Shown here: positions 60,803-64,000 of the stretch, one piece after another
Position numbering within the stretch: the stretch's first letter is position 1
Layout: the number at the start of each line of letters is the position of its first letter
Source: Paraburkholderia sp. SOS3
Lineage (GTDB): Bacteria; Pseudomonadota; Gammaproteobacteria; Burkholderiales; Burkholderiaceae
DNA: 64,000 nt
NCBI RefSeq assembly: GCF_001922345.1
Contig: NZ_CP018811.1
Span: 310,001-374,000, forward strand
Direction of reading: 5' to 3'
Translations under genes and position numbers: made by a program
The notes under the pieces: model-generated
Database searches by the model: none
Seen by the model: the letters and a program-made list of their open reading frames with translations, nothing else
Told to the model about the DNA's origin: nothing

Positions 60803-61246
60803 CTAGGGCTCGTGGTCGGGCGCGCGTGTACTGAAGTCAATACTGACGATCTTAGCGGACCGACCAAACGGCACGGTGAATGCGACGAAGCATCGTGCCA
60901 GGTGGCCTGAAGCGGCGAGAGTTAGCAACTCCTGAAAATGGCCCTCCGCCATATCGACGACTCCCTGCAATTCGGGATTGATCGATATGAATGCGCCAAC
61001 TGTAGGCAGGTCGGTATTACCTATATCCGGCTTGTCTGTCGACGAGACTTGGATCAAGAACCGGGTCACTTCGCCCACCGGTTCAGTGAACTCCCCCTTC
61101 AACTGAATCGACGCGCGGCTTTCGCGCCTGGGAGGAACACCGCGAGGCCGTTCGGCACACTCCGATAGACTCGCGTGCCAACTCGTAACACGCCCGTACC
61201 GACTCAGCAGTTCGCGCTCACCGTGTTGATGCTTCCGACTGACCAT
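60803..61246 (-). CDS. Hypothetical protein downstream of the ADP-ribosylation genes
   Basis: This 147-residue soluble protein reads like a real beta-rich fold in its second half (PTVGAFISINPELQGVVDMAEGHFQELLTLAASGHLARCFVAFTVPFGRSAKIVSIDFS). No family is recognised. It is in the same direction as, and only 60 nt after, the glycohydrolase gene, so it may be a fourth member of that operon. The ribosome binding site is weak. Confidence 0.6.
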   Translation of the reverse strand: MVSRKHQHGERELLSRYGRVTSWHASLSECAERPRGVPPRRESRASIQLKGEFTEPVGEVTRFLIQVSSTDKPDIGNTDLPTVGAFISINPELQGVVDMAEGHFQELLTLAASGHLARCFVAFTVPFGRSAKIVSIDFSTRAPDHEP

Positions 61247-61306
61247 GGCCTAGTATCCGGATCACCCTTGAACTAAGACATCGAATTCGGCCGACCGTGC
61301 GCCGAC

Positions 61307-62992
61307 TTATGCAGTCCTCCGTCGTCGCGCCACAAGTGCTTTCGCGATAATCGCAACGTACGCAATTGATCGATCCACTGGATGCGGCCCGTCGGCTAAG
61401 GCCCGAATGTGTTCCCCGATAATCCTACTATCGAAATGAGAGTGGATGGCCTCGGTTGTAAGTAGGTCGAGATCGTCTAGGCTGTGAGCCGTGCCAGAGT
61501 TCGTTGTTGCGTTACCTTTCTCCTGCGCAAGCTTTATCTCGGGGCCGCTCGCATTTTCCACAGGTGCGTGTTTAGGCTCTCCACTCTGCGTCGAAGGACT
61601 GTCCGACACTTGTCCAAGTAGCTCCCCTTGTCGATGCGTTGCAGGCTGCCGCTCTGCGCCCGACAAGCGTCTCTTGACTAATGCTGTTTGCCCGAATTCG
61701 AATTTGATCCATTGATACCCATAGGCACCCTTTGAACTTGGGACATCGAGAGGCGGATCAATCGGAGTCGCCCTGCCGAGCGCCGCTACGATTAACGTGT
61801 CATCGTCAGTTGCGACAGCATCGAGCGCGCTCCTCGGCGGCTCCCAACCGAGCAAGCTAGGGTAACCAAATGACCCAACTGTCTTTCGACGAGAGATATC
61901 GAACAAACGCTGGGCGTCGCGGACTATCCAGTCCGCGTCTTGTGGCTGCTCTGGAGGCGGCTCCTGAGTTACGGCTCCGATGAGTGCCCCTGCCATAGTT
62001 CCAATTGAGTCGGTGTCCGTACCCAACGTGTTGACGATCTCGAACAGGATTTCGTCAGGCTTTCGATCGTTCAGGAGGATAGACATCGCCGACGCAGCCA
62101 CCGCTGTCGCAGTACCGGACCCACGAGTCGAAGCATCGTCGAGCTTGAGGAGTTCCACTAGTTCGGCATACGGAGCGAGCGGAGCGCGTGACACCCAAGT
62201 GGTTGCCTGATCCACCTGTCGTTCGAGTTCGCGCACGACATCTTTATAGCCTTCGTCGACGGACTGTTTAGCTTCGTCCTCCCACCTAGGTAGCCAGAAA
62301 TCCCTTAGATAGTTGTCTCGTCGAATGGTGGACGGAATATATCCAACGCACTCCACTGCCTCCGCGAGATCACTTGCGGAAAGCGGCGAGAGCCGAGTCA
62401 TTGCACGTCCTAGGCAAGCCGCATGAAATACCGCTCCAGCGACGGCTCTCGGATGACCATGGGTGCATATTGCGTTCTTGACGACTTCTGCCAGATAGCT
62501 CGACGGAACTAAGGGCGATCGCGATGCCCAAACATGGGGCTGTATGCGCATAGCTGCGCCGTTACCACCACTCGTAACGTAGCTCAGCCCCTTTTCTTCA
62601 TAGAAGTTTGCGAACCATTGCGTGTCACGCCGAGCGAGGTTGCTGGCCGCCGTCGTGGTAGCTCTGCCCGCACCGAGCGCATACGACAACCAGACGGGCA
62701 ACTCCACCTTGGAGAATGCCTCGACGTCAAAGTGTCCGTCGCCTTGGATCGCTCTCGCTGTCGCTAACCTCAACTGAGTGTCATCCGAGTACGCACCCAC
62801 CGGCAAGGGCGCCTCAATCCCGAAGCGGCCGCCAATGCGTCGCTTCCACGGACGCAAATTCATCACTGTATCCACACCGGTACGCCTGCGGACTAGGGAG
62901 CGATCGGCAAGTTCCGTCATGAAACCTAACGCGTCGCCGTAAGCGGCCCATAGGGCCGAGCACTGAATAGCTTCTATGATTTTGTCGGTCAT
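61307..62992 (-). CDS. ADP-ribosylglycohydrolase (DraG/ARH fold) with C-terminal extension
   Basis: This 561-residue protein has a DraG-type ADP-ribosyl hydrolase domain over residues 1-375: GDALG at 19-23, metal-binding SDDTQ at 69-73, SGGNGAAMR at 141-149, THGHPRA at 177-183 and TDTDSIGTMAGALIGA at 325-340, so all key acidic residues are present. About 185 further residues hold a small folded-looking segment (YGYQWIKFEFGQTALVKRRLSG), a low-complexity linker and a helical end. ARH enzymes remove ADP-ribose from Arg, Ser or DNA. It overlaps the DarT-like gene by 4 nt and is the likely antitoxin or eraser. Confidence 0.9.
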   Translation of the reverse strand: MTDKIIEAIQCSALWAAYGDALGFMTELADRSLVRRRTGVDTVMNLRPWKRRIGGRFGIEAPLPVGAYSDDTQLRLATARAIQGDGHFDVEAFSKVELPVWLSYALGAGRATTTAASNLARRDTQWFANFYEEKGLSYVTSGGNGAAMRIQPHVWASRSPLVPSSYLAEVVKNAICTHGHPRAVAGAVFHAACLGRAMTRLSPLSASDLAEAVECVGYIPSTIRRDNYLRDFWLPRWEDEAKQSVDEGYKDVVRELERQVDQATTWVSRAPLAPYAELVELLKLDDASTRGSGTATAVAASAMSILLNDRKPDEILFEIVNTLGTDTDSIGTMAGALIGAVTQEPPPEQPQDADWIVRDAQRLFDISRRKTVGSFGYPSLLGWEPPRSALDAVATDDDTLIVAALGRATPIDPPLDVPSSKGAYGYQWIKFEFGQTALVKRRLSGAERQPATHRQGELLGQVSDSPSTQSGEPKHAPVENASGPEIKLAQEKGNATTNSGTAHSLDDLDLLTTEAIHSHFDSRIIGEHIRALADGPHPVDRSIAYVAIIAKALVARRRRTA

Positions 62993-63627
62993 GACGGCTG
63001 TTGAACAGCAATAAACTTGCTTGGGTCGAGAATCACAAGCAGATTGGGCTCGCCTACGGCGGCGAGAATCGCGTGCACCACGTTCTCCTCATCCTCTGTT
63101 CGGACGTAGATCGCCTTGAGATATTCTATCGACACCGCGCCAGGATAAAGCACTTCCGCTTGTGGACAGGTTGTCCACCCCATAGGGTGCGTCAGAGTGC
63201 GGCGAATCCGCTGTGAATAGCGCGCGGGGACCTCATCGGCGAACATCGCGTCGAATGCAGTCAGATCATCGCCGCGCCTGCACGCTGGATAGATGTTGTT
63301 CGTGGTCGTGAAATGAACACCGTTGTGTGTCATCAGGGCCGCGTCGAAGGAAAGGAGCACCCAGAAAACGTCGTTGTGCCATGCCTCAGATTGCTCGAAA
63401 AACGTATGATTGATCCTGCTTATCGAAAGGTTGACGTGATCGAGCCAAGCTGTGTCACGCCTAAACTTCGAATTTACCCGCAGGATGTACTCCAGGGTGA
63501 GTTCATCGCTAAGAGCTGATCTGGGGAGCAACTTCCCCGTCGACACGATTCCAATAAGACCCACGTTCGTCGTGAAGTGCACGAGGTCGGTGATCCCACG
63601 AGCTGCGATTCGGTCGGCAACTGTCAT
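62989..63627 (-). CDS. DarT-like (DUF4433) ADP-ribosyltransferase
   Basis: This 212-residue protein shows the DUF4433/DarT pattern: LVHFTTNVGLIGIVSTGKLLPR at 15-36 (H17 in the NAD-binding block), DHVNLSISRINHTFF at 63-77, GVHFTTTNNIYPA, AFDAMFADEVPARYSQ and PQAEVLYPGAVSIEYLKAIYV with the presumed catalytic Glu at 158. DarT enzymes ADP-ribosylate thymidine or guanosine in single-stranded DNA and block replication. It is coupled by 4-nt overlaps to a helicase gene upstream and to an ADP-ribosylglycohydrolase gene downstream. Confidence 0.85.
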   Translation of the reverse strand: MTVADRIAARGITDLVHFTTNVGLIGIVSTGKLLPRSALSDELTLEYILRVNSKFRRDTAWLDHVNLSISRINHTFFEQSEAWHNDVFWVLLSFDAALMTHNGVHFTTTNNIYPACRRGDDLTAFDAMFADEVPARYSQRIRRTLTHPMGWTTCPQAEVLYPGAVSIEYLKAIYVRTEDEENVVHAILAAVGEPNLLVILDPSKFIAVQQPS

Positions 63628-64000
63628 ACTTTTTTCAGGGTGAATGTGCCCTGCTTCATAAGCTCAACAAGCTTCGGCCGGTTATCGGCTTTGTAGCCGA
63701 TCGTCACCGTCTTTCGCGCACGCGTGATGCCCATTGCTACAAGCCGGCGCGCGCGTAGATACTCCTCATCCTCATCTTCTTGGCCGTGCGAGAAGCATTC
63801 ATCGCTCAGTCCAAGCATAAAGACGTGATCGAACTCTAGCCCTTTCACCGAATGTATCGTGGACAGGGCAATGGCCTCGTCGCCGGGCGGCCATTCGTTC
63901 ACTCGCGTCAGCTCGGCGAAGTCGAGCCCTGCGCCTTCAAGTGCTCCCCGAAGGTAGTCGAACCATCCGCCACCCTTTGCGTGCAAGAAGCCAACGGTCT
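63624..64000 (-). CDS. UvrD/Rep-like SF1 helicase, C-terminal part (cut by window end)
   Basis: The visible 125 or so residues are the C-terminal 2B/2A portion of a UvrD/PcrA/Rep-family DNA helicase: motif V STIHSVKGLEFDHVFMLGL and motif VI RRLVAMGITRARKTVTIGY. The frame remains open to the right edge, so the N-terminal ATPase half, and any fused nuclease domain, lie outside. The gene overlaps the DarT-like gene by 4 nt, so it is the first visible gene of that operon. Confidence 0.88.
   Translation of the reverse strand, partial: TVGFLHAKGGGWFDYLRGALEGAGLDFAELTRVNEWPPGDEAIALSTIHSVKGLEFDHVFMLGLSDECFSHGQEDEDEEYLRARRLVAMGITRARKTVTIGYKADNRPKLVELMKQGTFTLKKV

What the first reader, a model, noticed from the sequence alone, without database searches (positions are those of the whole stretch)
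60803..64000. Helicase / DarT-like transferase / ADP-ribosylglycohydrolase operon: a possible undescribed ADP-ribosylation defence system
Seen: three minus-strand genes joined by 4-nt overlaps encode the end of a UvrD-type helicase, a DUF4433/DarT-like transferase (HFTT and PQAEVL blocks) and a DraG-fold glycohydrolase with intact metal-site motifs; a 147-residue unknown follows 60 nt later. Known: DarT is normally paired with DarG, a macrodomain antitoxin, and DarTG acts against phage. Inference: here the eraser is of the unrelated ARH fold and a helicase is translationally coupled, suggesting a system in which the helicase senses or exposes single-stranded DNA (phage replication forks) for modification. 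I recall no named defence system with this exact trio.
Basis: partly seen in the sequence, partly recalled or inferred. Interest (0 to 1): 0.85.

Follow-up and report, generated by a model that had tools for sequence, protein, structure and literature searches.

The report
Helicase–DarT–ARH three-gene toxin cassette
A compact set of three bacterial genes (a DNA helicase, an enzyme that probably tags DNA with ADP-ribose, and an enzyme of a family that removes such tags) travels together between very distant bacteria, plasmids and prophages and looks like an unnamed toxin–antitoxin-type anti-virus system.

Summary
The minus strand carries the end of a UvrD-type helicase (full gene outside the window), a 212-aa PF14487 (DarT) protein and a 561-aa PF03747 (ARH/DraG-fold) protein joined by 4-nt overlaps. 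The trio is a real unit: of 76 loci encoding a relative of this DarT, 74 have all three genes in that order, across eight phyla. Of 30 DarT loci from the window's order, the 3 of trio type have both partners and the 27 others neither. The DarT lies on the DarT1 side (NADAR-linked, guanine-specific), not with thymidine DarT2. Two genomes carry a related helicase–DarT pair beside a NADAR antitoxin instead of an ARH: this eraser swap is the best argument that the ARH is the antitoxin. Copies lie on plasmids, in E. coli and in three viral contigs, one in the P2 antiviral hotspot. The 147-aa ORF is not part of it. No description of the trio turned up in ten paper searches. Activity, substrate, phage defence and the helicase's role are inferred; no structure could be computed.

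The parts
63624..64000 (-). C-terminal 124 codons of a UvrD-type SF1 helicase; the gene continues outside the window (L002:5624-7180 = G000:C1:373624-375180)
   Evidence: PF13361 1.1e-13 for the part in the window; whole protein UvrD_C and UvrD-helicase only, no nuclease domain; helicase present in order in 74 of 76 relatives
62989..63627 (-). DarT1-side ADP-ribosyltransferase, 212 aa, presumed toxin/effector
   Evidence: PF14487 1.7e-20; E. coli C7 DarT1 8baq 4.4e-18; tree and profile comparison; E158 76 of 76, N110 75 of 75, H17 74 of 74 relatives with a letter
61307..62992 (-). ARH/DraG-fold ADP-ribosylglycohydrolase, 561 aa, catalytic domain 16-341 plus a C-terminal extension; presumed eraser/antitoxin
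   Evidence: PF03747 4.1e-36; D20, E27, S69, D70, D71, D326, T327, D328 in 76 of 76 relatives

Best explanation
A horizontally spreading three-gene conflict module built like a DarTG toxin–antitoxin system. Shown by sequence: the unit is conserved; the DarT is a DarT1-side transferase with most of the DarT1 catalytic set kept; the ARH keeps its metal-site residues; the helicase motifs are intact; a NADAR stands in for the ARH beside two related helicase–DarT pairs. Inferred: the DarT uses NAD+ to ADP-ribosylate bases in single-stranded DNA (guanine most likely, from its likeness to DarT1). The ARH removes the mark and so is the antitoxin of uninfected cells. The helicase, encoded just ahead of the DarT and translationally coupled to it, unwinds or tracks along replicating foreign DNA and gives the DarT its single-stranded substrate. 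Phage infection tips the balance, DNA is modified and replication stops. The least certain step is the helicase's role.
For: 74 of 76 loci with all three genes in order; at least 57 of 74 helicase/DarT and 41 of 74 DarT/ARH junctions are in-frame 4-nt overlaps; co-varying distances r 0.79-0.84 against a permutation maximum of 0.118; 0 of 27 other DarT loci with these partners; DarT1 likeness; NADAR in place of ARH in L126 and L140; divergent helicase–DarT–ARH sets on three plasmids; trio in the P2 hotspot between gpA and portal; PADLOC families hit by neighbour proteins (57 families for 129 proteins against 1 for 91 control proteins).
Against: No activity, toxicity or phage test exists. [quoted passage not shown] D58 is kept in only 58 of 76 relatives and DarT1 M71 is not conserved here. 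Many immediate neighbours are metabolic genes and most of the listed PADLOC families are hit by a single neighbour protein. In L126 and L140 the NADAR is on the opposite strand, not co-transcribed. Helicases without DarT fall among the DarT-linked ones in the tree. L069 has kept DarT and ARH with only a helicase fragment.
Confidence: 0.6

Rival explanations
1. Addiction module: the DarT–ARH pair keeps islands, plasmids and prophages in the cell by toxin–antitoxin action; the helicase is a repair factor that clears ADP-ribosylated DNA rather than a sensor. Phage defence is secondary or absent.
For: Copies lie on plasmids, viral contigs and beside integrases. Many neighbours are not defence genes. 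UvrD-family helicases serve nucleotide excision repair (recalled), and the title of a paper cited (Lawaree 2020, not read) says that DNA ADP-ribosylation is reversed by nucleotide excision repair and RecF recombination.
Against: The P2 hotspot copy, BREX pglZ beside the Nostoc pair, RADAR in the same E. coli region, type I restriction genes beside the window's copy. Addiction alone does not need a third, always coupled helicase.
Confidence: 0.2
2. The DarT does not modify DNA bases but another target (RNA, DNA ends or a protein bound by the helicase), and the ARH removes that mark with the kind of chemistry already known for ARHs.
For: Known ARHs act on protein side chains (recalled) or phosphate-end ADP-ribose on RNA and DNA (PMC11833690, section titles and passages); identity to solved DarT1 is low.
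Against: DarT1 base-contact N104 corresponds to N110, present in 75 of 75 relatives, and E152 to E158, 76 of 76. Profile probability 99.7 with NADAR-linked DarT1s. NADARs, a guanine-ADP-ribose hydrolase family, stand in for the ARH.
Confidence: 0.15
3. An ordinary regulatory or repair operon of the host with no conflict role, as in DraT–DraG control of nitrogenase.
For: DraG-fold enzyme present; the ARH scores 42.9 bits with the DraG model.
Against: That score is far below the model's cut-off of 337. The trio is rare (3 of 399 genomes of the order including the window's), patchy and crosses phyla.
Confidence: 0.05

Closest known systems
DarTG1 (DarT1–NADAR)
   Same: Same side of the DarT tree; most of the DarT1 catalytic residues; two genomes have a related helicase–DarT pair beside a NADAR-DarT1
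   Different: Eraser here is ARH-fold (PF03747), not NADAR; a helicase is coupled to the DarT; no helicase is described with DarTG1 in the passages read
DarTG2 (DarT–macrodomain DarG)
   Same: PF14487 transferase with a linked ADP-ribose hydrolase
   Different: Separate branch of the DarT tree (99/95), no macrodomain partner, a helicase added. PMC9035990 (one passage) reports an 8.5-kb segment of SGI1-related elements with a DNA helicase, a macrodomain protein and two DUF4433 proteins; its arrangement was not examined here
DraT–DraG and other ARHs
   Same: ARH/DraG fold with metal-site motifs
   Different: 42.9 bits against a cut-off of 337 for DraG; C-terminal extension; partner is DarT, not DraT
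Gabija (GajB helicase)
   Same: UvrD-type helicase; best PADLOC hits of the helicase C-terminus are GajB models
   Different: No GajA-like gene among the neighbours seen; the helicase is followed by DarT
ARG-domain-centred systems of PMC9503650 (passages read)
   Same: ARH/ARG domain in conflict neighbourhoods, sometimes with helicases
   Different: Those were chosen for the absence of a coupled transferase

Membership tests
DarT family (PF14487) | Match above the curated cut-off and the ART catalytic glutamate | tested here: met
   74.1 bits against 22.5; E158 in 76 of 76 relatives
DarTG2 | Macrodomain antitoxin in the operon | tested here: not met
   Partner is PF03747; 21 of 30 flank proteins of the 27 other DarT loci are macrodomain proteins
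DarTG2 | Thymidine-specific DarT2 | tested here: inconclusive
   Sequence places it away from macrodomain-linked DarTs; base specificity was not measured
DarTG1 | DarT of the DarT1 branch with the DarT1 catalytic residues | tested here: met
   Tree (some long branches, and one comparison row, L105, was called DarT1-like without a proven NADAR partner); hhalign 99.7; H, R, N and E kept, D in 58 of 76, M71 not conserved
DarTG1 | NADAR antitoxin | tested here: not met
   ARH instead of NADAR in the window and the trio loci; NADAR only in the related pairs L126 and L140
DarTG1 | ADP-ribosylates guanine in DNA | not testable with these tools
   Needs biochemistry
ARH/DraG fold (PF03747) | Family match with intact acidic metal-site motifs | tested here: met
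   125.6 bits against 26.2; SDD and DTD motifs in 76 of 76
DraG (TIGR02662) | Score above the equivalog cut-off | tested here: not met
   42.9 bits against 337
Gabija | GajA nuclease next to GajB | tested here: not met
   Helicase neighbours in the window's genome are the DarT and an integrase
Anti-phage defence system | Protects cells against phage | not testable with these tools
   Only circumstantial: hotspot and neighbours

The most novel reading that the evidence does not exclude
A third class of DarT antitoxin: an ARH-fold enzyme that removes base-linked ADP-ribose from DNA (not reported for ARHs in the papers seen), inside a helicase-guided DNA ADP-ribosylation immunity module whose helicase–DarT core accepts interchangeable erasers (ARH or NADAR).
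Probability: 0.4. Interest if true: 0.88.

Novelty: new variant of a known kind. Interest (0 to 1): 0.74.

Why it matters
If right, DarT toxins have a third, unrelated kind of eraser, the ARH fold gains a nucleic-acid-base activity, and DNA ADP-ribosylation has a dedicated helicase partner that may explain how such enzymes find single-stranded phage DNA. The ARH/NADAR exchange on related helicase–DarT pairs makes the chemistry directly testable: both erasers should act on the same kind of mark. A near-identical cassette sits in 21 of 5426 complete E. coli genomes, so tests in laboratory strains are easy.

Tried and rejected
No model and no fold search exist; profile and tree comparisons were used instead. 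ORF4 as a fourth component: rejected. Thymidine/DarTG2 model: rejected on sequence. Gabija: rejected. Chance adjacency: rejected by the control. All DarT-linked helicases as one exclusive clade: not shown; two helicases without DarT fall among them, and one clade is not rejected (AU p 0.344). A first junction count ignored reading frame and was replaced, whose printed list shows only the 12 commonest classes, so 57 and 41 are lower bounds. Phage-record collection: no match with the DarT. The ARH C-terminal extension searched alone found 3 proteins, the window's own among them, all with PF03747.

Limits of counts: the 76 loci were found with motifs of this DarT clade. Of the 35 PF14487 matches, five had no locus and were not examined. 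Flank proteins for one search were picked by hand, one or two per locus, within about 1.5 kb. In some searches only a few first-look candidates per genome were scored. Defence-neighbour survey: 129 of 209 neighbour proteins were scanned (the first by locus number), family counts are not protein counts, and the control was 91 proteins of the window's own genome, not matched by species. Five of the 75 complete sets (74 plus the window's) were left out of the distance comparison as partial or odd. Trees used 19 trio sets; long proteins were trimmed. Of seven plasmid records with a DarT match, four have the close trio; two distant ones (L133, L134) show no trio and the Rhizobium one was not examined.
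Full report
WHAT IS THERE. The minus strand at the window's right end holds three coupled genes: a UvrD-type helicase (last 124 codons in the window; an ORF of 518 codons reaches L002:7180, and an ATG at L002:7051, like the starts of relatives, gives 475 aa), a 212-aa protein matching PF14487 DarT (1.7e-20) and a 561-aa protein matching PF03747 over residues 16-341 (4.1e-36). Both junctions are 4-nt ATGA overlaps. 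Upstream of the helicase lie a tyrosine integrase on the same strand and type I restriction genes (HsdM, HsdS, HsdR) on the other.

IS IT A UNIT? A scan of one genome per species with the DarT alignment gave 76 loci. In 74 the helicase, DarT and ARH genes are present in that order on one strand (the helicase is split in L018 and L056). Of the two exceptions, L079 starts inside darT at a contig end, and L069 keeps only a 53-aa helicase-like fragment (6.4e-6). In-frame 4-nt overlaps join helicase and DarT in at least 57 of 74 and DarT and ARH in at least 41 of 74. Pairwise distances of the three proteins co-vary over 70 loci (r 0.788, 0.843, 0.839; maximum of 1000 permutations 0.118; no species-tree control). 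The 69 loci with a phylum label cover eight phyla, and 17 of them have their nearest relative in another phylum, which indicates horizontal spread (MAG labels may err).

CONTROL. Because that scan used motifs of this DarT clade, I also took PF14487 matches in 399 genomes of the window's order: 32 genomes, 35 matches, 30 fetched. Three are of the trio type (the window's own included) and have both partners; the other 27 have neither within the fetched flanks. Among 30 flank proteins of those 27 loci, 21 are macrodomain proteins and 2 are DarT1-associated NADARs. In 398 genomes of the phylum a trio-type ARH at 1e-30 was found only in the window's genome, and the nearest helicase elsewhere (L116) scores 255 bits against 643. 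The system is rare but coherent.

WHICH DarT? The only relevant solved structure found is E. coli C7 DarT1 (8baq, 4.4e-18). In a maximum-likelihood tree the 19 trio DarTs form one clade (100/98); DarTs linked to NADAR and to divergent ARHs lie on the same side, macrodomain-linked DarTs on the other (99/95; several long branches). Profile comparison gives 99.7% probability with NADAR-linked DarT1s and 88.0% with macrodomain-linked ones. PMC11543638 (passages read) names H17, R52, D54, M71, N104 and E152 in DarT1. By alignment I match them to H17 (74 of 74 relatives with a letter), R56 (72 of 75), D58 (58 of 76), F76 (F 29, M 22, Y 14, L 9 of 76), N110 (75 of 75) and E158 (76 of 76). D54 is the extra catalytic aspartate that paper describes in DarT1. 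Guanine is therefore the likelier base, as an inference.

THE ERASER SWAP. L126 (G671:C116) has a related helicase (481 aa) overlapping by 4 nt a DarT (219 aa), with a NADAR-DarT1 gene (PF22397, 1.6e-89) on the opposite strand. L140 (G819) repeats this (NADAR 1.2e-86). Among 321 genomes searched with the L126 helicase, five had a match at 1e-40; these two are the close ones, the other three being longer helicases. More divergent helicase–DarT–ARH sets occur on Shinella, Streptomyces NBC_01220 and Rhodococcus WAY2 plasmids; the Shinella and Rhodococcus ARHs carry a C-terminal glyoxalase-like domain. On a Nostoc plasmid a DarT and an ARH lie between an AAA-domain gene (the part held is not matched by the helicase profile) and BREX pglZ. 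The helicases of these sets lie near each other in the tree, but two helicases without DarT fall among them. The simplest reading is a helicase–DarT core with interchangeable erasers, which makes the ARH the antitoxin.

SETTING. Close trios on plasmids: Salmonella, Streptomyces tsukubensis (beside Tn7-like genes) and two Cereibacter records. E. coli: 21 of 5426 genomes, all chromosomal, at least 99% identical to the Salmonella plasmid copy; in the one strain looked at it lies in a region after ychF with an integrase, and RADAR rdrB is about 13 kb away. In viral contigs, three of five DarT loci have the trio: L112 between P2-like replication and portal genes, the antiviral hotspot of PMC9122126 (passages read; no mention of DarT, DUF4433 or glycohydrolase in its main text); L111 beside filamentous-phage genes; L110 beside a Mu-like capsid gene. 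The phage-record collection had no match. Of 129 neighbour proteins (of 209), hits at 1e-20 fell in 57 PADLOC families, none hit by more than 2 proteins; many neighbours are metabolic. Of 91 control proteins from the window's genome, one family was hit. The defence association is real but modest.

HOW IT PROBABLY WORKS. Shown: conserved operon, intact motifs, DarT1-side transferase, eraser exchange, mobility. [quoted passage not shown] One published result stands against the easy story: PMC11833690 (abstract and passages) found NADARs the only hydrolase family reversing guanosine RNA ADP-ribosylation. Either this ARH branch has a new activity or this DarT makes another linkage.

IS IT KNOWN? 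PADLOC-DB 2.0.0 gives a weak DarT match (1.6e-6), helicase matches led by GajB, and nothing for the ARH. Public records name the three proteins one by one ('helicase' or '3'-5' exonuclease', 'DUF4433' or 'DarT', 'ADP-ribosylglycohydrolase'); Pfam shows no nuclease domain in the helicase. Ten paper searches and passages of PMC9503650, PMC11125620, PMC13092281, PMC12255303, PMC9519451, PMC9967889, PMC5179494, PMC12724379, PMC5122569 and PMC9035990 gave no description of the trio. PMC9503650 lists DarT–Macro/NADAR and DraG–DraT as known pairs; PMC11833690 names only macrodomain and NADAR antitoxins. PMC9035990 mentions a segment with a helicase, a macrodomain protein and two DUF4433 proteins, so helicase neighbours of DarT have been seen, with a macrodomain. 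PMC11543638 remarks that DarTs occur in operons with different hydrolases, citing a 2012 paper that I did not read, so DarT–ARH adjacency may have been noted there.

VERDICT. A real, to my searches unnamed, widely spread variant of the DarTG theme. Membership in DarTG1 or DarTG2 fails on the eraser; likeness in working principle is strong.

Noticed in passing
window 60803-61246: 147-aa ORF of a Burkholderiaceae family of unknown function (61 relatives); a 101-aa, 99% identical form on a contig of 4483385 bases, the length of the window's contig, suggests a later start.
   Followed up: partly
L126:525-3334 and L140:90-2952: Helicase–DarT pairs with a convergent NADAR-DarT1 gene: an apparently undescribed extended form of DarTG1.
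   Followed up: partly
L132:6081-7814 and L144:4619-6421: ARHs of divergent helicase–DarT–ARH sets carry a C-terminal glyoxalase/bleomycin-resistance-like domain.
   Followed up: no
L138:1296-4320 (Nostoc plasmid pC052_C): 531-aa DarT with a long N-terminal extension, overlapping an ARH gene, just ahead of BREX pglZ.
   Followed up: no
L133:2057-4597 (Deinococcus sp. QL22 plasmid): 846-aa protein with a DarT match near its C-terminus, directly after an N-6 DNA methylase gene and before a hypothetical gene.
   Followed up: no
L112:6667-8306: ARH of the P2-like prophage copy lies in two reading frames (358 and 200 aa frames): decayed or a sequencing error.
   Followed up: no
L129 (Streptomyces tsukubensis pST1): Trio next to a TnsA-like endonuclease gene and a DDE transposase gene, possibly cargo of a Tn7-like element.
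   Followed up: no
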